Positions 6,001 to 56,242 of a DNA stretch of 64,000 bases are shown here, one piece after another. The notes under the pieces are model-generated. The model worked only from the letters and a program-made list of their open reading frames with translations. It made no database searches and was not told where the DNA came from. Position 1 is the stretch's first letter, and the number at the start of each line of letters is the position of its first letter. The DNA is from Pseudomonadota bacterium (GTDB lineage: Bacteria; Bdellovibrionota_C; UBA2361; SZUA-149; DAOLCO01). The translations under genes and the position numbers were made by a program. The stretch spans positions 70,148 through 134,147 of the forward strand of contig JAIYCX010000013.1 in NCBI GenBank assembly GCA_027487795.1, given 5' to 3'.

Positions 6001-9000
6001 CAGAAATAAGATCACTAATCCCATCCCCATTTAAATCACCTAGAGTTACTGAGTTTGGTGTAGCTCCACTGGCAAATGAGGCTCTTCTTTTAAATGTTCC
6101 ATCCCCGTTTCCTATTAATACGCTTAGAGTATTGATGTTACGATCCGCTGAAACCAGATCACTAACACCATCCCCATTTAAATCACCTATTGTTACCGAA
6201 CTCGGCCCAGCTCCAATAGAAAAAGAGACTCTGCTTTTAAATGTTCCATTACCGTTTCCTATTAATACACTTAGAGAGTTATCGCCTTGATCAGAGGAAA
6301 TCAGATCAGTGACACCATCACCATTCAAATCACCTAGCTGAACTGAGCTTGGTATATTTCCACTAGCAAAAGAGACTCTGCTTTTAAATGTTCCATCCCC
6401 GTTCCCTATTAATATGCTAAGAGTATCGCCACTAGAATCAGCAGAAATAAGATCTATGACGCCATCCCCATTTAAATCACTTAGCTTGACTGAGCTCGGC
6501 GTAATTCCACTAGCAAAAGTGACTCTGCTTTTAAATGTTCCATTCCCATTTCCTATCAATACGCTTAAAGTATTAGTAGTTTCATCTGAGGAAATAAGAT
6601 CTCTAATCCCGTCACCATTTAAATCACCTAGCGTTACTGAGGTTGGCCTAGTTCCACTAGCAAAAGAGACTCTACTTTTAAAACTCCCATCCCCCAACCC
6701 AATACTATTAACAAACCCCCCAGCCCCGTTTCCAAATAAAACAACGGCTTCACCTGTACTCTTCTTAGTCGCTACTATATCATTATTCCCGTCGCCGTTT
6801 ACATCATGCAAATTAACATCCGATACTTCTCCGCCGATGGCATAAGAAACAGACGATTTATAACTACCATTACTATTAGCAGTCATGACATAAACAGAAT
6901 TGGAGGTTCCTCCAGCGATAACTAAATCTTCAAAAACATCCGCATTTATATTACCTTTTACAAAGCTTGAAGCAGCCGAACCTACATTATAACTAATTCC
7001 AGATTTAAAACTTCCCGTATTATTTCCAGCTAGGACATTTATAGTAGCTGTACCACTTGCACCAACTACAGTATTTAAAAATACGTTCAAATCAGCAGTC
7101 GTATCCATAGTAGTGACAAAATCAAGATCGCCGTCGTTATCAACGTCACCGGTTGTTGCATTATTCGCCCTACCTCCCACCGATACTGTTATAGCTTTTT
7201 TAAATGATCCATCTCCATTTGAGACTAATACTTCGGAGCCAACATTTGTATTAATTAAAAGATCTTGCCTTCCATCACTATTAAAGTCTGAAAACTGAAT
7301 TCCCCTACCAGTTCCGTTAATAGCTATCGTTGTTTTTGCCTTATAGGTACCATTACTATTAGCTAAAGATACAAATGCCTCACTTCCCCCGACACTAACT
7401 AAATCTAAATATGTATCTCCATTCGTATCCCTAAATGCAAAAGTATCGGAGTTGAAATTATTATATAAAGTAGTCCAAGAATTAAAAGTCCCATTAGCGT
7501 TACCAGTAATTACTCTAAGAGAACTAGTAGAAGTTTCATAAGCGATAATATCTTTGATACTATCATTATTAACATCCGCGATCTCTGCACCAAACATACT
7601 GACACTTCCAGATATCATGCGATATGTGGCTTTAGCTTTAAAGCTCCCGTTTGCATTTCCTAATAGTACTGAGACTGTAGAACTGCCACTAGCATTTGTT
7701 ACTATATCTAAAAACCCATCTGCGTTTAAGTCAGAGGCAGAAAAACCTGCGGTAGACAAACCAGTATCATATGAAATACCCGCAGCAAAAGTTCCATTGC
7801 TATTACCTTTTGCTACATAGATAACAGAAGAACCTGCATGCTGAGTTATTAAATCTTCAAATGTATCGCCATCAATATCAGTTAGATTAATGTCAGTACC
7901 AGTCAGCTGAGTAGCAGTAGCAAAGCTGTTTCTAGCTTTAAATGTTCCATTCCCATTTCCGAACAATACATCTATAGAGTTTGTACCAGCTACAGTAACT
8001 GCATCTAAGTTTCCATCTCCATTGATATCCGCAAGCTTAACAGCGTTAGGATTAGCACCAGTATCATAGCCTCCGGGAGCACTGCCGTTACCAAGTAAAA
8101 TTTCAAATCTAGTATCACCACCACCCGTATTAGCAATGTCAGTAATTCCATCTTCGTTAAAATCAGCTATCGCTAAATCTCCAGAAGCCATCGCTGATAT
8201 AAAACTATTTTTAGCCTTGAAAGTACCATTTCCATTACCTAAGAAAATAGCATGACGAGTGTAAGGGAATCCGAATTCATCTTCGACTAAAAAGTCTATA
8301 TTCCCATCACCGTTAAAATCACTAATAATAATATCTTGGGGCGTTATACCTGACCCAGAACTAAGATAGTTTATTGATATAGTACTTTTAAAACTACCAT
8401 TTGAGTTTCCTATTAAAAGGTTTCCAGTATTTGCATTAGTATTATAGTCACTAGTAAATGCTACAATATCAGCGATACCGTCCCCTGTGAAATCACCAAC
8501 AGAGAGTTTTGAGAATGAAGTTCCCTGTAACCTATAGCTTATATCTGTTTTAAAAGTACCATCTCCATTACCTAAAATAATCCAGGTTCTAGCTTCCTCT
8601 GTAGTTGTATCAAAACCTCCTGCTACTATATCTATAAATCCATCATTATTAACATCACGAGTCACTGCTTGTGTTATAGGAGCTGTAGAATTAGATATTT
8701 GAACATCTGCCTTAAAAGTACCATCTCCATTAGAGAGTCTAGTCATAACTCTATCAGTATTACTTATATATACTAAATCATCTGAGGTATTATTATCAAA
8801 TTTTCCAAATGTTACTCCCAAGTTTGTTAGACTTTGTGAAGAAGAAGTCTTAAAAGTACCATCAGAGTTTGCTACACTAATATATATATTACTTGACGTA
8901 ACTCCAACAATATCAACGATACTATCAGTTCCAGTATTTATATTAGCCGAATGTAAACTTCCAGCGGTAAAGCTCGCATTTATAAAATATGTTGTTAAAG

Positions 9001-11160
9001 ATTTAAATGTTCCATTTCCATTACCTAGATTTACAGCGATCCTTCCGTCTGTCTTAGAGTTAATAACGTCATCAAAACCATCTCCGTTAAAGTCCCCAAC
9101 TAACATTTCAGTATTTCCGAATGAGGTAGCTCCAAAAGAAATCGCTGCTTTAAAAGTACCATCTGATCCGCCAGATATACCTTTAAAAGTAAAAGCAGGA
9201 GATCCTGCGACTTGCACGGTACTTAATGAAATTATCTCCGCCCCTGCTGTTCCATTAGTATTTCCAACTAAAATATCAACTTGACCGGTTAAGGTAGTAG
9301 CAGAAATAGCAGCCTTAAAACTGCCTCCACTATTACCAAGTTGAACTGAAATATTCGTACCAGTTCCAGAAGCTCCAACATCAGTTGTTATTATATCTAA
9401 AAATGTATCACTATTAACGTCAAATAGTTCGACCTTACTCGCTCCAACTGTTGTTTCATAACTTGAAGCTGCTTTAAAAGTGCCATCTGCATTGCCAGTG
9501 ATTTGGCTAATAGTAACTATATCCGCAGTACCATTATTATTTGTATCTAATACTGAAAAATCAATTACTCCAGACCCAGCTACATATGAAATAACTCTTT
9601 TAAATGTCCCGTTACCATTCCCAAGTTGGATACCAAGAGTTGTGCCATTTCCAGTAGAACCGACATCACTAGTAATTAAATCTTTAAAACCATCCCCGTT
9701 TAGATCGTAAAGCTCTACTTTTTTTGCAGCTGCGTTAGTTGCATAACTTGCAGAGTTTTTAAATGTTCCATCAGTGCTATTACTGTTTGCGACACTAAGA
9801 ACTACAATATCTTGATATCCATTGTTGTTAGTATCAAGAATGGCAAGATCTTCCATCCCAGCAATACCAGTATAAGTTACCTTAGCTTTGAAAGATCCAT
9901 CGCCGTTACCTCTCTGCACACTAATAGTATTTCCAGTACCCGTTGCTCCGTAATCTGTGGTTATAAGATCTAGGAAGGTATCGTTATTTAAATCATATAA
10001 TTCAACATTTGTTGGCCCTGTCGTAGTCGCATAAGAAGTAGAAGAATTTTTAAAAGTACCATCAGCATTTGCTAAACCCACACTGGTTACAGAAGTAAAA
10101 GTTCCATCCCCCGATACTCCACTAACCCCGCCTGGACTAACTCTATCAAAGGCAGCAGTACCTGTTCGTTCTAAAATCCCGCCTGTTTGATTATTTGCAA
10201 TAAATACCCTTACAATATCCTCTTCAAGATCACTAGTTACAATATCTAGCGCACCATCTCCATTCAAATCAGTAACAGAAAAGGCATGCACCGAAGAACC
10301 CGCACTAGCACTAAGCGTAGATTTAAAACTACCATCTCCGTTGCCTCTTAGTAATTGTATAGAGCCGATTTCTGCACCTACTCCGAGACCAACAAGAATA
10401 TCAAAATTAGTATCCGCGTCATAATCTACTATTTGTAAGCTCTGTGCTCCTGTTCCTACAAAGTAGGATATCGCAGACTTAAAAGTGCCGTTACCATTGT
10501 TTAAACCAACTCTAACTTGGCCCGTTGTACTACTAACAGAAACAAAATCAGCGTAGCCATCTTTATTAAAATCTACACTTGATATTTCTGTTGGATTAAG
10601 TCCCACGTTATAACTTTGCCCTGCGGTAAAAGTTCCACTTCCAGAATTATAGAAAGTATCAATACTTCCACCAGTATTCGATGATACTAAAAGATCTGGA
10701 GTAGTATTTCCATCGATGTCTCGAATTGTAATACTAGTTGGTGATGCGGTTGTTCCAACTAATGTCACTGACTTAAATGATCCATCAGCATTACCAAATC
10801 TAATACTAGCTCCACTTGCTGATGAATTTACATAGGCTAGATCTTGAATTCCATCAGAGTTTAAATCTCCCCTTGTGATATCACTTCCAACACCTGTTCC
10901 CGCATATGAAACTGCACTGTTAAAACTTCCATTTGCATTTCCCTTAAGAAATCTAACTTCACTATTAGAATCGTTAAAAGCAATTAAATCTTCAAATCCA
11001 TCTGTATCAGCATCGTAATAAAGAATCTCAGAAACAGCTCCTCCGACAGCATACGAAATAGGGCTTTTTAATGTTCCGTTTGAATTAGCTTGTAGAATGC
11101 TAATAGTATTTGTTCCTGCATCAGCTGTTATAATATCAACACGCCCATCTGAGTTTACGT
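1..11160 (-). repeat. Tandem FG-GAP/VCBS coding repeats, period about 147 nt
   Basis: The coding region consists of back-to-back units of about 49 codons; some units are a few codons longer. Each unit carries a 'FKxxxSY' strand and a DxNxDG-type calcium loop. Between about 1975-2990 and 5640-6690 neighbouring units are nearly identical at DNA level, indicating recent tandem amplification. Elsewhere only the protein motif is conserved. I estimate 70-75 units from length divided by period. Confidence 0.85.
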
Positions 11161-11812
11161 CTGCTGTTAAAAGGTCGATAGCAGATGATGTTGATACATA
11201 AGATGCACTACTTGAGAAACTACCAGTGGCAGTAGTTTCAGTTTGCTCTACTTGATGCCTAACGGTTCTTCTCTTTTTTACGAATCCATCTACTTGAACA
11301 TCTTTAGCTTTAATTTTTTCAGTACCCAATAGAGTATCAGTACCAGCAATCTGTGATAGAGCAATAACAAGTTCCGAGCTTTGCTCTACATCGATACCGA
11401 TACCCTTCATGGCATTAGTAAGCTGATCTTTATCAAGTAAGTTTATGCCCTGCTCTTTTGCTCTACTGAGAACTCTCTTAAAACTTTTTATATGTCTTTG
11501 AAATTCAGTATCCAAAGCATTTCGCTCAGCATCTCCTAGATTCTCATCACTAGCTCTCTCAGCTAAAGGAATTAGCTTTTCAGTAAGGTATAAAAGTTCT
11601 TCTAATGAGTCTTTAGAAATCTGTGCAGTTTCAACTGCGGAGTTTAATTTAAAAAAGGAGTTACTAAAAGCCGTATTGATCGAAGATAGCGTAGTAAGTA
11701 CTTCTTGATTTTTTGAATCAAAGCTCGCACTAAGACCTTTACCACCGATGGTGGAAGTTCTACCCGATACTTGTGCCGGTGCCGCTGCGTTTATACTTTT
11801 AATGTCGCTCAT
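1..11812 (-). CDS. Giant flagellin-like / FG-GAP repeat protein (3' end outside window)
   Basis: The minus-strand frame from the ATG at 11810-11812 can be followed to position 1. The start and the left edge lie in the same codon phase, and I met no stop in the stretches I translated. That gives at least 3,937 residues, with the C-terminus beyond the window. Residues about 38-127 read like a flagellin/FlgL D0-D1 helical segment (SINTAFSN, DSLEELLYLTEKLIPLAERA, EFQRHIKSFKRVLSRA, GINLLD). From about residue 217 onward the protein is a chain of roughly 49-residue FG-GAP/VCBS-type repeats with calcium-binding DxNxDGxxD loops, as in beta-propeller and integrin-alpha repeats. No classical signal peptide is visible, so export by a flagellar or type I route is conceivable. 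Likely a cell-surface or released adhesin-like protein; function inferred from domain type only. Confidence 0.88.
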   Translation of the reverse strand, partial: MSDIKSINAAAPAQVSGRTSTIGGKGLSASFDSKNQEVLTTLSSINTAFSNSFFKLNSAVETAQISKDSLEELLYLTEKLIPLAERASDENLGDAERNALDTEFQRHIKSFKRVLSRAKEQGINLLDKDQLTNAMKGIGIDVEQSSELVIALSQIAGTDTLLGTEKIKAKDVQVDGFVKKRRTVRHQVEQTETTATGSFSSSASYVSTSSAIDLLTADVNSDGRVDIITADAGTNTISILQANSNGTLKSPISYAVGGAVSEILYYDADTDGFEDLIAFNDSNSEVRFLKGNANGSFNSAVSYAGTGVGSDITRGDLNSDGIQDLAYVNSSASGASIRFGNADGSFKSVTLVGTTASPTSITIRDIDGNTTPDLLVSSNTGGSIDTFYNSGSGTFTAGQSYNVGLNPTEISSVDFNKDGYADFVSVSSTTGQVRVGLNNGNGTFKSAISYFVGTGAQSLQIVDYDADTNFDILVGLGVGAEIGSIQLLRGNGDGSFKSTLSASAGSSVHAFSVTDLNGDGALDIVTSDLEEDIVRVFIANNQTGGILERTGTAAFDRVSPGGVSGVSGDGTFTSVTSVGLANADGTFKNSSTSYATTTGPTNVELYDLNNDTFLDLITTDYGATGTGNTISVQRGNGDGSFKAKVTYTGIAGMEDLAILDTNNNGYQDIVVLSVANSNSTDGTFKNSASYATNAAAKKVELYDLNGDGFKDLITSDVGSTGNGTTLGIQLGNGNGTFKRVISYVAGSGVIDFSVLDTNNNGTADIVTISQITGNADGTFKAASSYETTVGASKVELFDVNSDTFLDIITTDVGASGTGTNISVQLGNSGGSFKAAISATTLTGQVDILVGNTNGTAGAEIISLSTVQVAGSPAFTFKGISGGSDGTFKAAISFGATSFGNTEMLVGDFNGDGFDDVINSKTDGRIAVNLGNGNGTFKSLTTYFINASFTAGSLHSANINTGTDSIVDIVGVTSSNIYISVANSDGTFKTSSSQSLTNLGVTFGKFDNNTSDDLVYISNTDRVMTRLSNGDGTFKADVQISNSTAPITQAVTRDVNNDGFIDIVAGGFDTTTEEARTWIILGNGDGTFKTDISYRLQGTSFSKLSVGDFTGDGIADIVAFTSDYNTNANTGNLLIGNSNGSFKSTISINYLSSGSGITPQDIIISDFNGDGNIDFLVEDEFGFPYTRHAIFLGNGNGTFKAKNSFISAMASGDLAIADFNEDGITDIANTGGGDTRFEILLGNGSAPGGYDTGANPNAVKLADINGDGNLDAVTVAGTNSIDVLFGNGNGTFKARNSFATATQLTGTDINLTDIDGDTFEDLITQHAGSSVIYVAKGNSNGTFAAGISYDTGLSTAGFSASDLNADGFLDIVTNASGSSTVSVLLGNANGSFKAKATYRMISGSVSMFGAEIADVNNDSIKDIIAYETSTSSLRVITGNANGTFNSWTTLYNNFNSDTFAFRDTNGDTYLDLVSVGGSEAFVSLANSNGTYKAKTTIAINGTGRGIQFSDFNSDGRQDLLINTNVGSEVLVSNGDGSFKKAITVSVGGRANNATTGDVDNDGDLDFVTTMDTTADLNVFLNTVVGASGTATINVLAGNNTGSFKSGISYNVGSAASSFVKGNINADVFEDLVIAGGTSNSVYVMTANSNGSYKSSVSYAIGGEVSDVNLHDVNGDGNNDIVATKKSTGEAVVLFGNGAGGFVNSIGLGDGSFKSRVSFASGTRPTSVTLGDLNGDGIRDLISSDETTNTLSVLIGNGNGTFKSRVTFASGITPSSVKLSDLNGDGVIDLISADSSGDTLSILIGNGDGTFKSRVSFASGNIPSSVQLGDLNGDGVTDLISSDQGDNSLSVLIGNGNGTFKSRVSFSIGAGPSSVTIGDLNGDGVSDLVSADRNINTLSVLIGNGDGTFKRRASFASGATPNSVTLGDLNGDGISDLISADGDGLSLSVYTGNGDGTFKSRVSFASGSAPSSVMLGDLNGDGISDLISADQSSNTISVLSGNGDGTFKSRVSFASGSSPSSVTLGDLNGDGVTDLISANITSNTLSVLLGNGSSFTSTYDLGTATTSTTLADLNGDNITDLAALDTSTNKLLVSFGNANGSFKSAISYAAPAGATDIKTGDVNADNKTDIIVSTSTGQNVSVFTNNGNGTFKSRVTLNVAGSSYGVAVGDVNADGILDIAASNQDQNDVRVFLGNQGAGSSSLNVLSGNANGSFSTRVSFVASSTATALAYGTFNAGSTNDIVTADGAAGTVSVYIGNNNGSYKARVSISLGGTISDVSVHDVNADGNDDIVATDSSTGEAKVLLGTGTGGFVQSIGLGDGSFKGRNTFNLEANGNILAYDFNRDGVLDLISADDSGSGSNVSIAIGNGDGSFLTQVTLLRGNSTYDVAIGDFNNDGFSDLFATGHATNKLILSNGDGTFKSAVSINKTFALTFDVESADFNNDGNLDIAYNSADGGYQYRIALGNGDGTFKAETSIYNDAFTSARYSIARDFNNDGNIDIAIISNSVSDDLGIFFGNGDGTFGGKKTIATVTDPEAITSADINKDGIQDILIAGSASRLGIHLGNSDGTFQALQTKATAGAALQDLKVADFDGDSILDVVIASGAGPAVSVALGVGDGTFGGFTNYNTSGNPAAIAVADLNGDGIADILSGGNTPGNGVSILLGNGISSVSTYKLGTTPSQVILSDINNDNINDLAALDTSTNKLLVSFGNSNGSFKSAISYIAPAGATDIRAEDFDDDGDTDIFVSSSTGQSVSVFKNNGTGTFESRVTYNVGGQSFGVAVGDLNADGYADIAATDFTNTTVDIFLGNATVGQYGVINVLSGNSDGTFVAGISFAASANATALAYGTFNAGNTRDIVTADGAAGTVSVYIGNSDGSYKARVSISLGGNISDVNVSDVDGDGNYDIVATDSSTGEAKVLFGNGAGGFVQSIGLGNGTFKGRVSFSTGSEPTSVTLGDLNGDGISDLISADQDSTHLSVMIGNGDGSFKSRSSYTTAGAPSFVTLGDLNGDGVTDLISTDQSSASLSVMIGNGDGSFKSSTSFAAGNGPRSVTLGDLNGDGVSDLVAADSSSNSLSVMIGNGDGSFKSRSSFVTGTSPFSVTLGDLNGDGVSDLISADNGSASLSIMIGNGDGSFKSRYSLVTGTNPASVKLGDLNSDGISDLISADTGSASLSIMIGNGDGSFKLRSSFVTGSNPSSVMLGDLNGDGVSDLISADAFSASLSIMIGNGDGSFKSRSSITTGGSPYSLTLGDLNGDGVSDLISADFDNSTLSVMLGNGSSLTPTYDLGTATTSTTLADLNGDNISDIAALDTSTNKLLVSFGNSNGSFKSAISYVTSAGAKDIRTGDFDADGDIDIAVASSTGQSVEIFHNNNNGTFKTRVTYNIQGDAYGLAVGDLNGDDALDIAATNFTSNDVRILVGNTTGSGGGFKTEDAPEYVQLYDANGDSSIDALVATVGTGTSTISVLAGNGNGTFKSRISYVVGTDIGEFALADIGGPTVREDLIAAGGTSNSVRVLFANNDGSYAAAISYAGSGNISDVSVVDFNGDTFEDIIATDTTNGKVLFYAGNNNGTFKSAVSYVAGAGASAVEVRDINGDTFLDVVTTDSTTNTVSVLLGNSNGTFKQRTSYQVAGNANSISFGDFNEDGIQDLSVGSVTSGNDTVNILFGNAAGTYKSALSFRTGDDIKTSKVSDFNLDGFDDVVTTTGSDNKTRVFLGNGNGSFKTGVSYTGGQGNFGLALGDINADGSTDFVTTSNLDDDIQVYLGNTHLISGAGGYKAGTAAVQIASGDLNNDGNIDIVSSNGDSVSILYGNGDSSFKAGISYAVTGTPTSGLIADFDDDGDMDLVISTTTGNALKILVNNGTGTFKAAETLANLSAAADQLIIGDFNNDGDKDIAAGSSGAISVVFGNGNSTFKAVASFVAGAGISSLDSGDVNGDGI
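1798..6830 (-). repeat. Higher-order repeat, period about 1.84 kb, within the FG-GAP gene
   Basis: A distinctive G-rich block (plus-strand view) occurs at about 1798, 3634 and 5473, spaced 1,836 and 1,839 nt. A second C-rich block recurs at about 2990, 4850 and 6690. Each super-unit therefore holds about 12-13 FG-GAP units in the same order: variable calcium-loop units, then block A, then a run of near-identical units, then block B. The third copy diverges after block B. This indicates segmental duplication of about 1.84 kb in addition to single-unit amplification. Confidence 0.75.
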
Positions 11813-44179: not shown

Positions 44180-44392
44180 AGCTAAAACTTCTACCTAGAT
44201 AAGATTTTAAAAGAACGGAAATACTTGCATTAAATAGCACTAATAAAAACATTGTCAAACTCTAAGAACTTCTCCTAATAATATTTCTGAATTTCATATA
44301 GTTACGATTTAAACCATAAAGTTTTGAAGCAAAACTGCCGTAACTTTTTTTATAGTTGTGTGTGTTCTTGTGTTTCAAAAAAGGGGTTTTTT

Positions 44393-46156
44393 ATGAAGTC
44401 TAAGTTTTCGCTTGTTTTACTTTCTCTATTCTTAATTTCTAATATTTCTAAAGCTAGTAACGAAATTAAAGATGGGGTCATTGATGATTTTAAAAAAATT
44501 GGCTCTGTTGTTAGTTTAGAAGGAGACTCTAACAAAAGAGGTCCTAGTGGTTTAGGAATTCAGTCTGGTCGTGCTAGTAGTTTATCATTTGAATATACTG
44601 GAGAGGAGTATGGAAGTAGTAAAGCAATTTATGTAAAAGATGGAGCTAGTCAAGAGTCTCCAAGTACAAACAGACTTGATGTAGATAAAGATAATCGCAT
44701 TAGTCCGCTTGATGTATTAATGTTAATAAATGCTCTGAATAGAGGAGATCAATATAATATAGACTTAGATGCTAATTCTGATGGTTATGTAAGTCCTATA
44801 GATGTATTACTGATTATTAATTACTTAAATCGCGATCCTGCGACTAATCAGGGAGGTACATATACTGGAAATAATAGAGTATCGGACACTACCGATTCTT
44901 CATTTTCACTAGCAAACTATGGTAGAGGACAATCCAAAGCCAGCGTTAGTTATAATACACAGGCAAAAAAAGAACTATTAACTGGCTATACAGGTTTTAG
45001 TCTTAAAATTAAATTTAATGGTCTTGAAGCTTATAGTACGAATGATCCAGAAATTAAAATCGGTTTAACTACAAGAGATGAAAGAGGATATATCGCAGGA
45101 TCCTCAGTCTGCTCTACTAAAATAGAAACAGTTATGGCCGAAAGCGGAAGAGCAAGAATAAATAAAAATGCTAAAGTCGAGATACCATTTGCGAATTGTG
45201 TAAAAGGAGCAAATGCCAGCTCAGCAGCTGATTTAAAAAATATTTCTGAAATTGGATTAAGTTTAATAAATAAAGATTTTCTTTCAGAGTTTTCTGTACA
45301 GGAATTTTCTCTTACTGGAAAAATTGAAGTAATGGGGCCAGAAGATATTTATACACCTAACGCAACCAATATTCCTCTCCTACCGACAAGAAGAATACAA
45401 TGTGACGTTATTGACTTAGCAGAGATGGAAAGAAAGACAAATGAGGAATTAGAGAATTACATGAGAGTACACGGGGGAAAAGTAGATTTCGAGGGAGAAA
45501 CGTCCTGTTTTAGAAATCCATATTTCGATGCTTCACTAGGAAATGGAACAAATGTATATGTCCCACCAGCTCAATTCGGTGAATTATTAAATATGTATAC
45601 AGGAGATAACGCTAATTATAATAACAGCATTGAACAAAGCAAATCATACTGGATAAATTCTAATGCAAATAATGCTGCTGTAAAGAGCGCATGTTTTATA
45701 TGCTTGTTAAGAAGAGATAGTGGATGTTATCCACGCGGAGTACAAGTATCTCTAGCTAACGGAGATAGTAAAAAAGTCGAAGATATCGCAGTCGGAGATC
45801 TAATAAGTAACCCAGTTACAGGAGAAGCTCGTAAGGTTTTAAAAATTGTAGAAGGACCAGAAAAGTTAGGAATAGTAGAATATGGTTTTGGAGATACTTT
45901 AGCTAAGGTAACCCAAAAGCATCCAATACTTACTAAAAATGGACTTAAGACAGCTATTGAACTTAGTCTATCAGACGAAGTGAAAGATAAAGAAGGTAAA
46001 CTTCATCAATTAAGACACCTAAAAGTACTAGAAGTTCAAGAAGGTGAGACTGTTATCAACTTCGTCCTCGAAGGCGAAAATAAAGATGATCACTACATGC
46101 TAGCAGATGGCATAGTTGTAGGAGATTTATATCTACAGAAAGAGCTAGGGAAGTAA
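44393..46156 (+). CDS. Exported dockerin- and Hint-domain protein
   Basis: The ATG at 44393 is preferred over one 23 codons upstream: AAGGGG precedes it and it opens a signal peptide (KSKFSLVLLSLFLISNISKA). 587 residues. A type I dockerin-like pair of calcium loops lies at about residues 96-150 (DVDKDNRISPLDVLMLINAL and DANSDGYVSPIDVLLIINYL). A beta domain occupies the centre. A C-terminal Hedgehog/intein (Hint) module starts at about residue 446: CYPRGVQVSLANGDSKKVED, IAVGDLISNP, TQKHPILTKNG, and ends HYMLADGIVVGD. Hint modules cleave themselves at the N-terminal Cys; the usual terminal His-Asn is replaced by Gly-Asp. Likely cell-surface attached. Confidence 0.88.
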   Translation: MKSKFSLVLLSLFLISNISKASNEIKDGVIDDFKKIGSVVSLEGDSNKRGPSGLGIQSGRASSLSFEYTGEEYGSSKAIYVKDGASQESPSTNRLDVDKDNRISPLDVLMLINALNRGDQYNIDLDANSDGYVSPIDVLLIINYLNRDPATNQGGTYTGNNRVSDTTDSSFSLANYGRGQSKASVSYNTQAKKELLTGYTGFSLKIKFNGLEAYSTNDPEIKIGLTTRDERGYIAGSSVCSTKIETVMAESGRARINKNAKVEIPFANCVKGANASSAADLKNISEIGLSLINKDFLSEFSVQEFSLTGKIEVMGPEDIYTPNATNIPLLPTRRIQCDVIDLAEMERKTNEELENYMRVHGGKVDFEGETSCFRNPYFDASLGNGTNVYVPPAQFGELLNMYTGDNANYNNSIEQSKSYWINSNANNAAVKSACFICLLRRDSGCYPRGVQVSLANGDSKKVEDIAVGDLISNPVTGEARKVLKIVEGPEKLGIVEYGFGDTLAKVTQKHPILTKNGLKTAIELSLSDEVKDKEGKLHQLRHLKVLEVQEGETVINFVLEGENKDDHYMLADGIVVGDLYLQKELGK

Positions 46157-46160
46157 ACTT

Positions 46161-46952
46161 ATGAAACTGAATATATTAAAATTAGTTATAAGTTTAACAA
46201 GTACGCTAATGCTGAGTATCTCAGCATTAGCAGAATCCATAGATAGAGAGATAGAAAGGAATTTAGGTTTAGAATATGCAAATGTATCAAAAGGTGTGAT
46301 AAAAGTAACGATTAAGCCTGAAGGACGATGTTTCTTTGGCGACCTTGATGCAATGATTTTAGAGCTAGGGACTAGTGCAAAAGACACTAAATATTACTTA
46401 AGTTTAGAGTCTATGGATAATACAAGTAGCCAAAGTACTAATTTCACAGAACTTCCAAGTCTAATGAAATTAGCTTCAGAACCTAATACTTTTGAATTAG
46501 CAATTCCTAATAAAGATTCAAAACTTCTTGGTTTATATCTGTGCAAATCTTCGTCAAGTAACTTCACGACTTGCAAAGATAAGAAGGTAGTGAGTTATAA
46601 TGAAATTCTAAAACGATATCAGGTTAATTATAACAAGAAAGATAAAACTGTTCAGAATGTATCAAACTCTCCAGAGTATCTAACGAACTCTGCTGATAAA
46701 ATTTATTTTTATAAACCAATAATTGTTCAAGACTATAAAGTAGCAGTTCCTACTAAGGCCATGAGCAATAGTCGTTATGAATCAATGAATAGTATGCTTA
46801 GTAAATTAGATGTAAATAATAAGTCATTAGAAAGCGATATGAAGACTATGCTTCAGTTATCATCAACCTTAGAATCTATTCCGTTGCAAGTAAAAAAAGG
46901 CGAAGTGGTGATTACACTGCCAGGTTTTAGTGCAAAAAAATGTGGGCTCTAG
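46161..46952 (+). CDS. Secreted protein, probable partner of the dockerin/Hint protein
   Basis: 263 residues with a signal peptide (LNILKLVISLTSTLMLSISA, cleaved near ALA). Mature protein has four Cys (GRCFFGD, LYLCKSSSSNFTTCK, KKCGL at the very end), a beta-type first half and a helical second half (ESMNSMLSKLDVNNKSLESD). Begins 4 nt after the Hint gene, so the two should be co-translated; it may be a ligand, chaperone or substrate of that protein. Its 3' end overlaps the convergent ppa gene by 4 nt. No family recognised. Confidence 0.72.
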   Translation: MKLNILKLVISLTSTLMLSISALAESIDREIERNLGLEYANVSKGVIKVTIKPEGRCFFGDLDAMILELGTSAKDTKYYLSLESMDNTSSQSTNFTELPSLMKLASEPNTFELAIPNKDSKLLGLYLCKSSSSNFTTCKDKKVVSYNEILKRYQVNYNKKDKTVQNVSNSPEYLTNSADKIYFYKPIIVQDYKVAVPTKAMSNSRYESMNSMLSKLDVNNKSLESDMKTMLQLSSTLESIPLQVKKGEVVITLPGFSAKKCGL

Positions 46953-48190: not shown

Positions 48191-50113
48191 CTAAAGAACC
48201 TTTCTCAGATCCCCAACTCTTATTGTTAATTTATTACTATCAAAATTTTCCAAAACTGGAACTGCCAGGTTTCTACTTAGTGCTGTCTTACCTCTAAAAT
48301 CTATTAACGAAAAGCCCTCGGGATGGCTTTGTTTTAACTCTAACAAAACAGATTTGTAAAAATTTAACTTCGTAGTGGAAAAAACATATGTTTGGATATT
48401 TGTTATCAAGCCTTCAGACTCTAGCAGTTTTTGAATTGGTTTAAATTCTTGTTCTGTAAACTTTATTTCTTCCAATAAATTAACTTTTGATATACCAGAT
48501 ACCACTTCTAATATGCGAAGTACTTTTTCGTAAGCTTCTAAGTCTTTTTTTGAAATTTCGGGCTTGAATGTTTTTAATGAAAAGTATGTTTTGTTGTAGG
48601 TTAATCTTTCATCTTTTAAAATAAAACTTCTAAATTTTTCCTCATCTAGACTTTCTACATTAAAACTTTCTGCGCTAAAGTACTTACATATCTCGTACAA
48701 ACTCAGTCCAAGCTTTAATGGATTTTTTAAGTGATACTTACTTATTATTGAAAATATTTTATTCTTAAGTGCTTCTTCTTTATAAGCATTAATCCAAGAA
48801 GTTTTCCCAATTCTTATTAGTAAAGATTGTGCCTCAAATTGAGCTAACTTCTCCTCATAATAGCCTTCATTTAATCCAAGTAATGCGACAAGATCTTTTT
48901 TATAAATAAAAATCCTCTCCCCTGCTAAGAGTTCAGATGAAGTAAAATTTCCGCTTAAATTAAAGCTACTAGAAGTATTAAAATCCTCTATTCTCTTTTC
49001 ACTATAACGCTTTCTAATCGGCCTTGAGGAGATAGATAAAACAGAGCCTCCTGCTACTGTATATGAATCTCTTAGAATGAACTTATCCCCTGCACTTACT
49101 ACGACTTCCTTACTAAATAATATCCTGCCTGCTGCTTCCATTCCTGGTTCTATTGTATTTCCACCAACTGGATAAACTCTACATGCTGCAGACAATGTTC
49201 CAAGGCAAAAAGTAAACTGCCTTCCTCTAACAATATGCTCGTTCTCAGAAGAATTTTTTAGCCAGACATTTATACTTTTTGTTTGATTAAAAACATTTGG
49301 CGTAGCCAAACAGACTCCTCGTTCAAAATCTTCTACCTCGGCACTTCTTAAATTTATAGCCGAGCTAATTCCCTGACTTGTAGCTAAAACCTCAGTCCTA
49401 TAATTTTGAATGCTTCTTATATCTAATTTATTTCTCGTATGTGATGTAATAAGCTCTAATTCTTGATCTTTTAAAACCATACCCTGACAAGGTATGCCAG
49501 TAACGACTACTCCTGCACCTTTCATAATGAATGCAGACCTAACATACATTCTAAAAGGAATGTTATTAGTTGTTTTTTCTATTTTTATACTTGTGAGTAC
49601 TGCTTCCTCTATTAGAAGTCGCAGTTCAGAAATTCCATAATTTGTTATAGAAGAAACTATGCTAATTCTAGAATCGTCAGAAATTAAAAATTCAACTAAA
49701 AGCTCTTCAATTTCTTGCTCAACTTCTTTAATTCTAAATTCAGAAACTAAATCTTTTTTTGTTATCACCGGTAAGATTTTCTTAGCACCTAAGTGAGATA
49801 AAATTTGTAGATGCTCTCTAGTCTGTGGCATGACACCATCATCTGCTGCGACTATTAAAAGAGCGATTTCGATAGAAGAAGCGCCGGCTGTCATATTTTT
49901 TATAAAATCTTGATGCCCAGGAACATCTACTAAGCCAATGACATCTCCATTAGATAAAACAAAAGGTGCCACTGCAAAGTCAATACTAACCCCCCTGAGC
50001 TTCTCTTCTGGGTGCCTATCGGTTTCAAACCCAGTTAAGGCTTTTACTAAAGAAGTTTTCCCATGGTCAACATGGCCGGCAGTGCCAATAATTATAGGTA
50101 AGGCTCGTGACAA
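48191..50113 (-). CDS. selB: Selenocysteine-specific translation elongation factor
   Basis: GTPase that carries Sec-tRNA to the ribosome and binds the SECIS hairpin. 640 residues, TTG start 7 nt after the selA stop. N-terminal EF-Tu-like part has G1 [18 protein letters not shown]2-region [15 protein letters not shown]3 [12 protein letters not shown] and G4 ITKKDLV. The long C-terminal part (from about residue 380) is the winged-helix array that recognises SECIS RNA, ending with [20 protein letters not shown]. Complete, with no missing motif seen, implying that the genome decodes UGA as Sec. Confidence 0.97.
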
Positions 50114-50120
50114 AATATGA

Positions 50121-51476
50121 CTATTGAAAATTATTTATACTGTTAATTATTTCAGTATCTTCAATATCAGAGACACCGCGAAGATCAAAATAAATCGCGC
50201 CATCATGAGTCCTAGTAAAAATACTTGGAGTTTGATTTCTTAAATAATTAGCAAATTTTTCAACTTGTTTATGCTTTATTCGAAACCCATAAGACTGAAT
50301 TGCTCTATCTGGAGTTGAGCCTCCACCTAGATAACTATCCATCATAACGACTTCGGCATTATCAACAGATATTTCTGATAAAATCTTATTAGCTCTATTT
50401 TTTAATTCTTTATTAGAGACACTTAAAAATTTATAAATAGGAATTTCCTCACTAACTTTATTATTTAGAAAACTAAGAAGGGTACCCTCTAATGCTCTTA
50501 AAGTAAGCTTGCAGGATCTGAACATTCTAGAAAATTCATTCTTTCTAATTCTATTAATTAAAGTTTCTTCACCGCTTAAAATCCCAGCTTGAGGTCCTCC
50601 AATTAATTTATCCCCACTATAACAACAAACAGAAACTCCGAATTTTACACAATCTTCGACTGTTAACTCTCTCTCCAGTCCCCACTTAGATAAATCAACC
50701 AAAGCCCCACTACCAAGATCTGCAAAAACAGGAATTTTATGTTTTTTCCCTAGCTCACACAATTCTTCTAAGCTCGGAATAGACGCAAAACCAGATATTC
50801 TAAAATTTGATTGATGCACAAACAATAATGCTGAAGTATTGGAAGTTATCGCTTTTTCATAATCTAATAAATGTGTTTTATTAGTAGTCCCAACTTCTAC
50901 CATCTTACAACCACTAGCAGCCATAATATCTGGCATACGGTAACAGCCTCCGATTTCAACTAAATGTCCTCGGCTAATAATAACTTCACGACCATCGCAA
51001 AGCTCTTTTAACATTATAAAAGTAGCTGCAGCGTTATTGTTAATTACAGTTGTAGCCTCAGCACCTGTTAATTCTTTTATAATTTCTTCAATGAAATCTT
51101 CTCGTTTCGATCTTTCTCCGCTTGATCTATCAGCCTGAACTAAATTATAGCCAGCTCCTACTTCTAAAAATTCAGTTGCTAAGTCAGATAGTGGTGCCCT
51201 ACCAAGACCAGTGTGCAGTAAAATTCCCGTACAATTGATTGCCCGTTTTCCTCCAAGGAAAACATGAGAGACTTCTTCTTTAATTTTTTTAATTATTTTT
51301 TCAAAACTAGGAACTGTCTTTTTCTTCAGTTTAATTTCTGAACGAATCTGATCTAGTACTCGATTAGCAATTAACTTAACTAATCCGATTCCTGTTTTTT
51401 GTATTAAATCACTTAGCTCCGTACAAGATAAAACTTTAGTGACCGCCGGTATATTCCGGTATGTATTTTCTTCCAT
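50121..51476 (-). CDS. selA: L-seryl-tRNA(Sec) selenium transferase
   Basis: PLP enzyme converting Ser-tRNA(Sec) to Sec-tRNA(Sec) using selenophosphate. 451 residues. N-terminal tRNA-binding domain begins NIPAVTKVLSCTELS; the core shows NCTGILLHTGLGRAPL, EATTVINNNAAATFIML, FADLGSGALVDL and the PLP lysine in CYSGDKLIGGPQAGIL. Begins 17 nt downstream of tRNA-Sec on the same strand, with selB next: one tRNA-Sec-selA-selB transcription unit. No selD in the window. Confidence 0.97.
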   Translation of the reverse strand: MEENTYRNIPAVTKVLSCTELSDLIQKTGIGLVKLIANRVLDQIRSEIKLKKKTVPSFEKIIKKIKEEVSHVFLGGKRAINCTGILLHTGLGRAPLSDLATEFLEVGAGYNLVQADRSSGERSKREDFIEEIIKELTGAEATTVINNNAAATFIMLKELCDGREVIISRGHLVEIGGCYRMPDIMAASGCKMVEVGTTNKTHLLDYEKAITSNTSALLFVHQSNFRISGFASIPSLEELCELGKKHKIPVFADLGSGALVDLSKWGLERELTVEDCVKFGVSVCCYSGDKLIGGPQAGILSGEETLINRIRKNEFSRMFRSCKLTLRALEGTLLSFLNNKVSEEIPIYKFLSVSNKELKNRANKILSEISVDNAEVVMMDSYLGGGSTPDRAIQSYGFRIKHKQVEKFANYLRNQTPSIFTRTHDGAIYFDLRGVSDIEDTEIINSINNFQ

Positions 51477-51493
51477 TTACCCCTCTATGATTT

Positions 51494-51588
51494 TGGCGGA
51501 AGTATATGGGGATCGAACCCACCCAGAGCTTTTTAGGCCCTGCAACGGTTTTGAAGACCGCAAGCATCACCAGACACTTCATACTTCC
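51494..51588 (-). tRNA. selC: tRNA-Sec (anticodon TCA)
   Basis: 95 nt with encoded CCA. The 8-bp acceptor stem GGAAGTAT/ATACTTCC, a 5-bp T stem (GTGGG/CCCAT) closing loop TTCGATC, anticodon loop CTTCAAA with TCA, and a long variable arm (AGGGCC...) are all diagnostic for bacterial selenocysteine tRNA (8+5 geometry). Discriminator G. Directly upstream of selA. Confidence 0.97.
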
Positions 51589-51738: not shown

Positions 51739-54700
51739 ATGCTTATTTCAAAAACAAATTCTTTCGGCTACATGCTCAAAGTATACTTGTTTTTGTTCGC
51801 GTTTATTTCTTACTTTTATAGCACGGATACTCAAAGCCAAAACAGTCAAAACGACAACTACGTCCCATACGAACCTAAAACTGGCGGAAATCCAAACTCA
51901 ACGACTCGTCCTGAAAAAATGGTCGAACAGAATATTGATAGGGCTTATCAAAACTTAGATAAATTCGTAAACAAAAACGGCAAAAGAATTTCAAATATTC
52001 CTCCTCAACAAAAAAACAAAGTAAGTAGATATGGTGAAAGAGGACCAGATAAAAATCCGCTAGAAAAAAACAACATAAACGGCACACTTGACAGGGCAAA
52101 GTCTTGGAATGAATATGTAATGGATAGTAGGGTCATTCTTAATGATTTAACATTTCCGCAATGTATGGAGCCTAGACTACTAGCTGAAAGAAGAAACGGA
52201 AGTGTTATATTACATGATCCTGCAAACGCTTTATACGCAGCTGCCTGTGCATTTAATTGCCCAAGAAGATTACTTCTAATCCCTATGAATAGAAATTGGC
52301 AAGTAACTTCCTATTATTGGCCTGAGTATCAAATTAGTGTTAACAGAGCTGGTGCTCAAATGATAGATACAGAAATCGTTAACGAGAACAGAGGTCCTAG
52401 TGAACTTTATAGAAACCCAACATCTATTAAAGAGGAAAGTGACGGAGAGCGCGGAAGAGCAGCTCAGCTTGCAATTCTTGATAGAATGGGAATCCCTGCA
52501 ACTAATCAAGATAATTTCAAAAGTCCTAATTATCACAGAGCAACTAGTGAGTTTCACCTAAGACAGGATGGAGAATTAAGATATCCAAGTGCCATGAGAC
52601 CAAATGCATTTTGGCGAGCTGCTAATGCAAGAAGAAGACAAAATATTGGCTACAGAAGAAACGATAGTTGCTTATTTAATGCATTAGATCCAACAACTGC
52701 AAATAGAAAAGTAGTCGCAAATAGATTTGATCAAGGAGTATACTCTCTACTTGCTAGATATCCTGAATTAAGAAAAAGAACAGATAGAGAAAGATACAGA
52801 TACACCACGCCTGCCGCAAGCAATCTTCAAGACTACAGAAATTTCACACCTCAACAATTCAAACAAAGTTTATGTGCATCATGGAGAATGAGTTCTAATC
52901 CAGAAGTATACCAAGAACTAGAAAGAGCAGGATTTAGCTCACAAAATGATCCCAAATTCAGAGATTACTGCCTACCAGGTGGTCTAGACCTTAGCGGATC
53001 AATGCTTGCAGAGGAAAATACGCCAATATTACAGGCAGACGCAGCAAGAGCTGTAATGGGCGCGATTTGGTTTGGATCAGATCAATCTCAATTTCAACGA
53101 ATGAACAAAAATGGTAGAAGAACAGCTAAATACTCTCTATATAAAAATAGAAGGAGCTCATCAGTTAATAGATATGTAAACTTCGAAAGCAACCCTAGTG
53201 AAAATGAATCAAAAATTGTTTTCCTAGATAAATTTCAAAGAATATACCCCACCCAATCTTTAACTGGAGGAGATGGAGAAGCAGGAGCAAGTAGTAAAAA
53301 TTTTAGAACTGATATCAATCAACGAGGTTCGCACTGCTTCAGACCAGAAGATATTCCAAATTGGTCTAGTGAAGGTAGAACTACAAAATCTGAGTGGCCG
53401 CTTGGTTTAATGCTGGACTCCTCAGAACACTTCGGAGAAACTAGATGGGCAGTATGGAATAGAAGAATAGTTTGTAGCTGCGAAGATTTAGGTATTTTCT
53501 CAGGTTGTTTAAATTTAAATGACGGAGATCACGATGAAGAAGTTTTCGCTGGAACACTTGGATTCACCGGAAGAAAAATGCCTCCTGCATTTGAGAAGGC
53601 TATACCTATAGTTAGAGGATTAGCTAATCAAACGAGTGCACCAAGCGCTCGTAGTGGCGGGTCAAAAGGATTTGATTTGAGTAGTGTCACTGTTGATTCA
53701 AGAATAGCAGGTAGCACATTACCAATAATGCCAGGGGGTGGACAATCTACTCCTCAAGTATCGGAAGCAAACCAACAACCTCAAGATATGTTCATCTGTA
53801 TGGCTGCGGAAGAACAACAAGATCAGAACAATCAAAACGGTCAAAATAACCAAAACAATAACCAGTCTCAAAATGGACAAAATAGCAATTCAAATACTGG
53901 TAGCAATACTACGACCGGAGGTAACACAACTACAGGTAGCACCGGTGGAACAGCGGGACCAGCAACTGGCTCTACTGGGGGTGGTACAATTAGTGGTGGT
54001 AGTGGAGGAGCCGCTGGTGGTGGAATAACTGGTGGCGGTAGCGCGCCTACAACCGGAGGTGGTGGAGGTAGTTTTGGTTCCGGCAGTTCTTCTGGTGGCT
54101 TCGGTGGCGGATTTGGGGGAGGGTTTGGCGGAGGGTTTGGAGGAGGATTCGGCGGTGGACCACCCACCTGAGTAGGTAATTCATGCAATAGAGCTTTCGC
54201 CGGGCGCGAGGGACCACAAAGAACAGTAAGATTAAAAAGGGTAAGAACAGAAGCCAACGGTTCTATCAGCGCCGTACAAATTGGTAGTGGCTTTAATTGT
54301 CGAGGTGAAGATTGTATTTTTGGGGCCAGAAAACTAATCTCTTCTAATGTTGGTGAAAAACCTTTCACTAAAACTACCTGCACCGAAACTCAAAATTTAG
54401 ATGGATTGTCATCAATTTATTGTGGTGACGCAGTGCAGCGAAAAATGCAAGAAAGGGAAAAAAGCTGAGGCGGCGGATCTTGCGACACCGGTGGTGGCGC
54501 GTATGATAGTGGGTACTCAGACGGAGGAGGATATTCTTCCGGAGGTGGCCAAGGATTCTACCAACAAGGTCAGAATGGTCTAGAATATTGTCAGCCAGTA
54601 TCTTCAGAAGATTATAATAACTCTGGAGGAAATTCGGGCGGTGGTGGCGGAGGTAGTGGATGTGCCGGTGGTAACTGCGGTGGTGGTGGCGGTGGTGGAT

Positions 54701-55269
54701 CTGGTGGCGGTTGCGCAGGTGGCAACTGTGGTGGTGGCGGAGGAAGTGGAGGTTCAGGTGCAGGCTCTGACGGCGGCTTAGGTGGTATTGGAGGTATTGG
54801 CGGAATCGGAGGTATCGGTAATGGACTCGGCGGAGTTGGGGGCATTATTGGTATCGGTGGAATTGGCGGTATATTAAATGGATCTCAAGGAAATTCTGGC
54901 TCTGATACAAGTAATGGAAGCAATCCTTCAAGCAGCCCCTTACCTATAGTTCCGATAGAACAACCAGCTTCACAAACTGGAGCTCAACAACAAAATGGAC
55001 AGCAGGCCGTGACTCAACCTCAATTCAATCCAAGTCCACAGTCTATAGTACCAAATATCGCACCAGTTACGATAACAGATCCACAGATAGTAACTCCGCA
55101 GCAAGTTAGTCCTGCTCAAAATAATACCATTCAGGATAATACCCCTCAAATTGAGCAACCAAACATACCTAGCTCTAATCCTTCTCCTTTACCGATAGTG
55201 CCACAGCGCACCATTAATAATTCTAATTCCGGCGAAAAGAAAAAGTCATTTGGAAATTTATTCGATTAG
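51739..55269 (+). CDS. Predicted exported two-selenocysteine Gly-rich protein (in-frame UGA at 54169 and 54466)
   Basis: A single reading frame runs from ATG 51739 to TAG 55267 (1,176 residues), interrupted only by TGA at codons 811 and 910. A conventional reading would stop at 54171 and call an 810-residue protein. N-terminus: signal peptide (MLKVYLFLFAFISYFYSTDT; a second ATG at codon 12 is possible). Residues about 130-650 form a domain I do not recognise, with FPQCMEPRLLAERR, ACAFNCPRRLLLIPMNR, YYWPEYQ and WAVWNRRIVCSCEDLG. Residues about 680-808 are Gln/Asn/Thr- then FGGG-rich. The tail holds five [U/C]-x4-C pairs: U811-C816, C854-C859, U910-C915, C975-C980 and C992-C997, then Gly/Ile- and Pro/Gln-rich segments ending FGNLFD. 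SECIS-like hairpins follow both UGAs, and tRNA-Sec, selA and selB adjoin divergently. A split pair of genes or a disabled gene are the alternatives. Confidence 0.82.
54194..54212 (+). promoter_or_regulatory. Candidate bacterial SECIS hairpin 1
   Basis: Stem CTTTCGC/GCGAGGG (7 bp including two G-U pairs) with apical loop CGGGC. The loop starts 29 nt after the UGA at 54169-54171, with G at the second loop position, within the range usually described for bacterial SECIS elements. Paired by eye only. Confidence 0.5.
54482..54500 (+). promoter_or_regulatory. Candidate bacterial SECIS hairpin 2
   Basis: Stem GCGACACC/GGTGGCGC (8 positions, one A-G mismatch) with a GGU apical loop, starting 21 nt after the UGA at 54466-54468. 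The GGU loop and spacing match bacterial SECIS expectations better than hairpin 1. Confidence 0.6.
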
Positions 55270-55285
55270 GTATTATAATTTAAGA

Positions 55286-56242
55286 ATGAAAAAAATTTTA
55301 TCGTTCTTATTTATTCTAATATTATCAAGTAGCCCTGTACTTGCTGATAATGATCCCTTCTCAAGTCCGACCGTAGTTTATGTTATCGCAAGCGGAAGTA
55401 ATTTAAATCATGTAAGAGAAGTGGTAGATAATACAGTTCGCCTCTCAGCTAAAGTTCCTATTAGAAGTTTTACTCTAGTACAAAAACTGAGTGAGATATC
55501 AGCAACTGCAACAGACGACAAAGAAAGCTCAATTAAATCTTACGACTCTGCAATTTCTCCGATAAAGCAACTAGGACTTGAAGAAACTAGTACAGACTCA
55601 AGTTTAACTACAGTTAAAGAACTAAGACTATCATACTCTCCTACTTGGATAGTAAAAGCTAATGGCAGAGAATATGTATACGAGGGCTACCAAGATATTT
55701 CTAAATTTTTTACTAGAGATGGAATATTTTTAAATAAAATAGAAGGTACTTCAGAAACTGAAAATCTCGGTAATATTGCACTTCATGAAAAAAGATCTAC
55801 AAGTATAAATTTCCCCCTAACATCAGAAAAACAAACTACTGAAAATTTAAATATCGGTATAATATTTAAACCTGGAGCAAACGACCCCTATCCAGATCTT
55901 GATGATAAAGTAGAAAACTTTATAGCCTTACCAAAATGCATCACAGCAAAAACAGAGCTTGATGAAGTCTTTCATGACACTCCCGGCAGTGAAAGTTTAG
56001 ACACTATCATATACGATCCTAGAATTATGAAAGAACAGAAATTAGCGTCAAGTCAAAAAGTTGCGACAATCCCTTGGGATCCCAACTACGACACAAGCGC
56101 CGGACATGAATCTGCCGATGCAAAACTTCAAGATCTTGCCAGAGTATTAAATCCAAGATGTTTACCTGCAAGATTTAGCTTTACCTATTCTGGCAGCAAA
56201 CGTTATCAAAAAATACAGTACGGCGACAAAGCGTGGGAGTAG
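55286..56242 (+). CDS. Exported protein, weakly thioredoxin/TrbC-like, downstream of the selenoprotein
   Basis: The ATG at 55286 gives a clean signal peptide (MKKILSFLFILILSSSPVLA); an upstream in-frame start would overlap the selenoprotein end. 318 residues. The N-terminal half (VVYVIASGSNLNHVREVVDN, VPIRSFTLVQKL, LRLSYSPTWIVKANGREYVY followed by EGYQDISKFF) has the strand-helix rhythm and a cis-Pro-like SPTW of thioredoxin-fold proteins, in particular F-type conjugation TrbC. There is no CxxC, and only two Cys are present (LPKCITA, NPRCLPA). Starts 16 nt after the selenoprotein stop, so almost certainly the same operon; a partner or redox target of the selenoprotein is plausible. The fold call is tentative. 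Confidence 0.7.
   Translation: MKKILSFLFILILSSSPVLADNDPFSSPTVVYVIASGSNLNHVREVVDNTVRLSAKVPIRSFTLVQKLSEISATATDDKESSIKSYDSAISPIKQLGLEETSTDSSLTTVKELRLSYSPTWIVKANGREYVYEGYQDISKFFTRDGIFLNKIEGTSETENLGNIALHEKRSTSINFPLTSEKQTTENLNIGIIFKPGANDPYPDLDDKVENFIALPKCITAKTELDEVFHDTPGSESLDTIIYDPRIMKEQKLASSQKVATIPWDPNYDTSAGHESADAKLQDLARVLNPRCLPARFSFTYSGSKRYQKIQYGDKAWE

What the first reader, a model, noticed from the sequence alone, without database searches (positions are those of the whole stretch)
51739..55269. New exported protein with two in-frame UGA codons, probably selenocysteines 811 and 910
Seen directly: from ATG 51739 the frame reads through TGA at 54169 and 54466 and ends at TAG 55267, with no other stop in the 1.1 kb after the first TGA. 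Composition stays Gly/Cys-rich and protein-like on both sides of both TGAs. Known: tRNA-Sec, SelA and SelB are sufficient for UGA decoding when selenophosphate is available, and all three genes adjoin. I do not recognise this architecture among known selenoprotein families. A standard gene caller would cut the protein at residue 810 and lose the last 366 residues, including all five paired U/C motifs.
Basis: partly seen in the sequence, partly recalled or inferred. Interest (0 to 1): 0.96.

Follow-up and report, generated by a model that had tools for sequence, protein, structure and literature searches.

The report
New multi-selenocysteine exported protein family
A gene from an uncultured bacterium with relatives named Oligoflexia has two in-frame UGA "stop" codons that are likely read as selenocysteine; relatives carry cysteine or UGA in the same kind of pair, one of them six UGA codons, which points to a likely new family of many-selenium proteins, predicted to be exported and possibly part of a pilus-like secretion machine.

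Summary
The frame 51739-55269 is open for 1,176 residues apart from TGA at 54169 (residue 811) and 54466 (910). tRNA-Sec, SelA and SelB adjoin; SelD lies elsewhere in the genome. Both U begin a UX4C pair, beside three CX4C pairs. Relatives P0005 and P0010 align Cys to U811, P0010 also to U910. Another genus (G001) has UGA in the corresponding pairs by motif and order, on its tRNA-Sec contig; G010 has six in-frame UGA. Seven of 11 UGA sit in UX4C/CX4U (0 of 20,000 random placements). Nine of 11 are followed by a hairpin with GG in its loop, against 270 of 3,731 other codons, a definition made after a first look; generic SECIS tests did not discriminate. A tRNA-Sec of 75 bits or more occurs in 5 of 45 class genomes, the same five with strong family members. 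No Pfam or NCBIfam model fits the window protein, and a 2026 table of 119 families lists none with UX4C. Neighbours encode a Cys-less thioredoxin fold and, in relatives, VirB2-like pilins. A redox or metal-binding role in an F-type-like apparatus is inferred, not shown.

The parts
51739..55269 (+). single reading frame, 1,176 residues, two in-frame UGA, stop TAG
51916..53658 (+). conserved N-terminal domain (about residues 60-640) with conserved Cys 142, 170, 174, 533, 579, 581; no recognised family, no solved-fold match
54169..54171 (+). UGA 811, likely Sec, first residue of UVGNSC
54196..54210 (+). candidate SECIS hairpin for U811: 5 pairs (one G-U), loop CGGGC, 29 nt after the UGA
54172..54465 (+). 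conserved mini-domain between the two UGA codons (CRGEDC ... C ... C)
54466..54468 (+). UGA 910, likely Sec, first residue of UGGGSC
54486..54496 (+). candidate SECIS hairpin for U910: CACC-GGU-GGUG, 21 nt after the UGA
54469..55266 (+). Gly-rich tail with CAGGNC twice
51494..51588 (-). tRNA-Sec, anticodon UCA
50121..51476 (-). SelA, L-seryl-tRNA selenium transferase
   Evidence: PF03841 2.3e-116
48191..50113 (-). SelB with C-terminal winged helix
   Evidence: GTP_EFTU 6e-35, SelB-wing_3 1.8e-10
55286..56242 (+). neighbour P1-P2: Cys-less part with predicted thioredoxin fold fused to a second part; separate genes in relatives

Best explanation
The frame 51739-55269 encodes one 1,176-residue protein, predicted to be exported, in which the two in-frame UGA codons (811 and 910) are likely read as selenocysteine by the SelA, SelB and tRNA-Sec encoded next to it. 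Shown: the open frame, the machinery genes, Cys aligned to U811 in two relatives and to U910 in one, UGA in corresponding pairs in another genus, the UX4C/CX4U pattern, and tRNA-Sec on the contig of family genes in three genomes. Inferred: hairpins 21 to 33 nt after the UGA act as SECIS elements for SelB, placing Sec as one partner of UX4C (elsewhere CX4U, CXXU) pairs in a glycine-rich, probably flexible tail. Inferred and less certain (about 0.40): the pairs close as selenenylsulfide bonds, or bind a metal, outside the inner membrane as part of the F-type-like pilus/secretion apparatus of this class, with the Cys-less thioredoxin-fold neighbour as a chaperone, much as TraF or TrbB are thought to serve the F system.
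For: Frame and motifs. Machinery: 3, 9, 10; SelD 22 (418 bits, no stop inside). Cys aligned to U811 in P0005 (CPDGKC) and P0010 (CADGSC), to U910 in P0010 (CQGGGC): 23, 45, 113. UGA in TSUGPNGC and DPUGGGDC plus a third in G001, six UGA in G010: 32, 45. P0018 ends at position 910: 67, 69, 73. P0019, an NCBI protein named from an Oligoflexia bacterium, is identical to part of the G001 frame and ends at its second UGA: 69, 105. Seven of 11 U have Cys five residues away, 0 of 20,000 random placements: 73. Hairpin after 9 of 11 UGA against 270 of 3,731 other codons and 145 of 1,228 tail codons: 58; two pairs with compensating changes among five elements, covariation score reached by 5 of 500 shuffles: 76. 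tRNA-Sec of 75 bits or more in 5 of 45 class genomes, the same five with family E of 1e-7 or better: 27, 29. tRNA-Sec on the contig of a family gene in G000, G001 and G014, and of pilin-like genes in G000, G001 and G010: 27, 29, 34, 74, 80. Pilus link: pilin-like genes in 41 of 45 (80), TraC_F_IV in 13 of 15 (81), TrbI 2.1e-14 with weak TraE and TraK in G000 (88), thioredoxin fold of P1 (90, 95, 96).
Against: No selenium or peptide data. At site 910 P0005 is not Cys in the alignment, and the G001 UGA are not placed in the columns of 811 and 910; those matches rest on motif and order. Generic folding does not single out the UGA sites (z -0.23 to 0.60), and the published bSECIS limits are met by 31, 40 and 51 of 70 background codons in the three genes. 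The hairpin definition was chosen after that look; neighbouring codons are not independent. The two UGA of WUPU in G010 lack the hairpin. In one search the number of pairs changed on both sides is reached by 56 of 500 shuffles. Twelve further genomes pass Rfam's tRNA-Sec cut-off at 47.2-48.8 bits without strong family members. Four of the five Sec-positive genomes are one family (f2). In G013 and G014 the family contigs seen with this architecture break before the tail. Against the pilus role: the N-domain matches no T4SS protein by sequence and no solved fold; two Sec-positive genomes, G001 and G014, gave no TraC match; the apparatus is far wider than the Sec trait; in the window's own genome the pilin cluster lies 17-18 kb away and the TraC set about 100 kb away.
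Confidence: 0.8

Rival explanations
1. UGA 811 is a true stop: the product is the 810-residue protein, and the rest is a remnant or a second protein with its own start.
For: In L060 and L063 the N-domain and the Cys-rich part are separate ORFs, the second with its own hydrophobic N-terminus; P0008 ends in the same GGPPT as the window before U811, which would also fit a conserved true stop.
Against: Tail open for 365 codons with one UGA (p 5.3e-9); tail mini-domain conserved in P0005, P0010 and G001 and in one ordinary frame with the N-domain in P0005 and P0010; no hydrophobic N-terminus after residue 811 in the window (by eye); the tail needs a second UGA read-through anyway.
Confidence: 0.06
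2. UGA is read as another amino acid (general reassignment or a suppressor tRNA).
For: In-frame UGA alone cannot tell Sec from another residue.
Against: 6 of 40 listed window ORFs end in TGA, followed by 3 to 57 open codons; the only tRNA found in the window is tRNA-Sec (the rest of the genome was not scanned for others); UGA pairs with Cys at a fixed distance and is replaced by Cys in relatives.
Confidence: 0.02
3. The protein does carry Sec, but it works as a metal, metalloid or selenium binding or storage protein of the periplasm or surface, not as a part of a pilus or secretion machine.
For: Many U/C pairs in a glycine-rich tail, varying in number (2, 3 and 6 UGA), and Cys-only paralogs in the same genomes, resemble repeated binding sites; the N-domain has no T4SS match; no TraC match in G001 and G014.
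Against: Association with the thioredoxin-fold P1 and with P2 in G000, G001 and G010, and in G001 with VirB2-like pilin genes in one run of genes beside tRNA-Sec.
Confidence: 0.4

Closest known systems
SelB-dependent bacterial selenoproteins (for example formate dehydrogenase FdhA, PMC13188914)
   Same: in-frame UGA, SelA/SelB/tRNA-Sec/SelD in the genome, candidate hairpin just downstream, Cys homologs
   Different: 27 molybdopterin matches in 15 genomes, many partial, have no stop in the matched part; 2, 3 and 6 UGA per gene; UX4C/CX4U pairs; no Pfam or NCBIfam match of the window protein
TsoB, rhodanese/DsbD fusion-like selenoprotein with UxxxxU (PMC13188914 Table 1)
   Same: four residues between the two positions; two Sec
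   Different: no rhodanese or DsbD match here; pairs are U with C, repeated in a glycine-rich tail
F-type type IV secretion (TraU, TrbC, TraW, TraF, TrbB of plasmid F)
   Same: predicted exported Cys-rich protein next to a thioredoxin-fold protein, with pilin-like, TraC and TrbI genes in the genome; P1 and P2 fused in one genome and apart in others, as PMC7555446 (passage) reports for TrbC and TraW
   Different: no sequence relation of the N-domain, P1 or P2 to 20 F-plasmid proteins by hhalign with single-sequence templates; the text of PMC7555446 does not hold the term selen-
Selenoprotein P of animals
   Same: many Sec in one secreted protein (abstracts seen)
   Different: eukaryotic; no relation tested; alike only in the number of Sec

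Membership tests
bacterial SelB-dependent selenoprotein | UGA inside one coding frame | tested here: met
bacterial SelB-dependent selenoprotein | Sec/Cys exchange at the same place in homologs | tested here: met
   of the 2 homologs that reach the sites, Cys aligned to U811 in 2 and to U910 in 1; the other has a CX4C further on
bacterial SelB-dependent selenoprotein | SelA, SelB, SelD and tRNA-Sec in the genome | tested here: met
bacterial SelB-dependent selenoprotein | bSECIS hairpin 16-37 nt downstream of the UGA | tested here: inconclusive
   hairpins at 29 and 21 nt in the window, 9 of 11 in the family (post hoc definition); published limits are met by 31 of 70 background codons of the window tail and z-scores are near zero
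bacterial SelB-dependent selenoprotein | selenium in the purified protein | not testable with these tools
   needs 75Se or mass spectrometry
any selenoprotein family with a Pfam or NCBIfam model | match to a model | tested here: not met
   P0001: 0 families at E 0.1 in Pfam and E 1 in NCBIfam. Other members: single weak Pfam hits only, best 0.0087; L055 hits its proline-rich end to SslE at 2.4e-4, 18.6 bits against a cut-off of 3000
F-type T4SS TraU | sequence similarity to TraU (PF06834 or the F protein) | tested here: not met
   absent from 21 members at E 10; not among the six best F proteins by hhalign
F-type TrbC/TraF-like assembly protein (P1) | thioredoxin fold | tested here: met
F-type TrbC/TraF-like assembly protein (P1) | sequence similarity to TrbC, TraF or TrbB | tested here: not met
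   TraF 0.44 and TrbB 0.39 percent probability, TrbC not among the six printed; no Pfam TrbC-F hit
VirB2/TrbC pilin (neighbours in relatives) | PF04956 over its cut-off | tested here: inconclusive
   best 3.1e-4, 21.4 bits against 27.9; others 0.01 to 0.17, several none

The most novel reading that the evidence does not exclude
A selenium-armed pilus or secretion machine: an exported family with two to six genetically encoded selenocysteines per chain (the 2026 review gives 2-3 as the upper range of its prokaryotic families) whose U/C pairs form selenenylsulfide links in an F-type-like apparatus, and which is the main client of the Sec machinery in this lineage.
Probability: 0.32. Interest if true: 0.93.

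Novelty: new variant of a known kind. Interest (0 to 1): 0.82.

Why it matters
Standard gene calling cuts such proteins at the first UGA, so exported multi-Sec proteins of this kind can stay hidden; nine of the 11 database homologs found here lack the tail, and one ends in the same GGPPT that precedes U811. The 2026 review that I read lists 119 prokaryotic families, most with one Sec and a small subset with two or three (it also mentions several Sec in some archaeal VhuD); a gene with six would extend that. It would bring selenium chemistry to the outside of the cell and perhaps to pilus assembly, and it offers eleven UGA contexts, some with natural Cys counterparts, for testing SelB and SECIS rules.

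Tried and rejected

Literature: PMC13188914 seen as outline, one passage search, section 5, and parts 1 and 2 of 3 of section 7; PMC7555446 and PMC7308576 passages only; the rest search listings. That this family is not in print rests and on Table 1 of PMC13188914, in which many rows give no motif.

Full report
Observation. The frame from ATG 51739 reads through TGA at 54169 (residue 811) and 54466 (residue 910) to TAG 55267, 1,176 residues. After the first TGA, 365 codons hold one further stop; at this base composition at most one has probability 5.3e-9, and the other five frames of that stretch hold 13, 17, 17, 18 and 28 stops. tRNA-Sec (51494-51588, minus strand), SelA and SelB lie next to the gene; SelD is on another contig of the same genome, 418 bits, without a stop. 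TGA also serves as an ordinary stop: 6 of 40 listed ORFs of the window end in it.

Motifs. Both U begin a UX4C pair (UVGNSC, UGGGSC). The same tail holds CRGEDC and CAGGNC twice, so all five pairs have the same spacing. In the eight tails counted, from window, relatives and paralogs, four residues is the commonest gap between neighbouring Cys or U. Over three UGA-bearing genes (window, G001, G010), 7 of 11 U have a Cys exactly five residues away; random placement of the U reached that in 0 of 20,000 trials, mean 0.43. Of the other four, two are CXXU (WCPTU in G001, VCTTU in G010) and two form WUPU in G010.

Homologs. The protein search gave 11 homologs among the 7,992 candidates that were scored. 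Two reach past residue 811, P0005 and P0010. In an alignment of the tails both have Cys in the column of U811 (CPDGKC, CADGSC); in the column of U910 P0010 has Cys (CQGGGC) and P0005 does not, its next pair (CTGPGC) lying further on. The full-length alignment A1 does not bring these sites together in the glycine-rich stretch. The other nine lack the tail: P0008 ends in GGGGPPT, the window reads GGGPPT before U811; P0002 ends in a similar glycine run; P0004, P0006 and P0009 end two residues after a Cys (CPS, CFD, CIT), P0003 ends otherwise, and P0007, P0011 and P0012 end earlier. Their DNA is not held, so I do not know which stop ends them. The mini-domain between the two sites is conserved: window against P0005 E 3.0e-4, against P0010 2.6e-5, against G001 0.037 (single comparisons). 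A profile of it found two proteins at E 0.1: P0018, 54 of 64 residues identical to the window and ending exactly at site 910, and P0019, an NCBI protein named from an Oligoflexia bacterium that is identical to part of the G001 frame and ends at its second UGA.

Relatives with DNA. Read with TGA as U, contig C215 of G001 has one frame of 1,380 residues, stop to stop, with UGA in TSUGPNGC, WCPTU and DPUGGGDC; the first and third flank the mini-domain as U811 and U910 do, by motif and order, though the aligner does not place them in those columns. Its tRNA-Sec and SelA lie on the same contig. Contig C105 of G010 has a 1,245-residue frame with six UGA: GUGPGGC just after the hydrophobic N-terminus, CTTU, WUPU (two), CTGPGU and CGGGGU. 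G001, G010 and G013 also hold paralogs with Cys only (L063, L060, L062). In G014 the family contigs, and in G013 the closest one, end before the tail. A tRNA-Sec of 75 bits or more is found in 5 of 45 genomes of the class, G000, G001, G010, G013 and G014, and these are the five with family matches of E 1e-7 or better. Twelve further genomes pass Rfam's cut-off at 47.2-48.8 bits and were not inspected; the two with weaker family matches, G007 and G003, are not among them. Four of the five are of one family, so this is fewer than five independent events.

SECIS. Generic tests do not help: folding z-scores are between -0.23 and 0.60, and the published limits are met by 31, 40 and 51 of 70 tail codons of the three genes, with the two window UGA matched or beaten by 26 and 15 of 70. 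That look showed a recurring hairpin, and I then counted it: a stem of at least 4 pairs without bulge, at most one G-U and at least 3 G-C, with GG in a loop of 3-5, 14-37 nt after the codon. It follows 9 of 11 UGA and 270 of 3,731 other codons of the three genes (Fisher 3e-9), or 145 of 1,228 tail codons (2.5e-7). Spacing is 21-23 nt in seven, 29 and 33 in two; the loop is GGU-type in six and CGGG-type in three. Five elements of equal spacing align without gaps; two pairs show compensating changes, 94 percent of cells pair, and the covariation score is reached by 5 of 500 shuffles, the number of doubly changed pairs by 56 of 500. The definition is post hoc, codons overlap and three of the five elements come from one gene, so these figures are a guide. 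The two UGA of WUPU lack the hairpin.

Known families. PMC13188914 (seen: outline, one passage search, section 5, two of three parts of section 7) lists 119 prokaryotic families, most with one Sec and a small subset with 2-3; none is listed with UX4C, many rows give no motif, and TsoB alone is listed with UxxxxU. Searches of papers for Oligoflexia with selenocysteine, for selenoproteins with several Sec in bacteria, for selenoproteins with pilin or type IV secretion, and for UxxxxC showed no title or abstract on this family.

Noticed in passing
L059 13942-17676: One frame with six in-frame UGA, among them WUPU (two U in three residues) and one U directly after the hydrophobic N-terminus.
   Followed up: partly
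window 2-11812 (-): An open frame of at least 3,937 residues, running off the window, with arrays of a 147-base unit (49 residues), 77-79 percent matches.
   Followed up: no
window 44324-46156 (+): Protein with a type I dockerin match and a weak Hint-like C-terminal match, followed by another probably exported protein 46161-46952.
   Followed up: no
L084 10652-19819, L085 2-2275, L086 9326-13281: Chromosomal F-type-like secretion gene set (TraC, TrbI, weak TraE and TraK, VirB2-like pilins); pilin-like genes in 41 of 45 class genomes, TraC in 13 of 15 order genomes.
   Followed up: partly
L060, L062, L063: Cys-only paralogs of the family in genomes that have tRNA-Sec; in L060 and L063 the Cys-rich part is a separate ORF with its own hydrophobic N-terminus.
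   Followed up: partly
G014:C48:7752-7838: A second tRNA-Sec-like match of 49.4 bits in G014, and matches of 47.2-48.8 bits in twelve genomes without strong family members.
   Followed up: no
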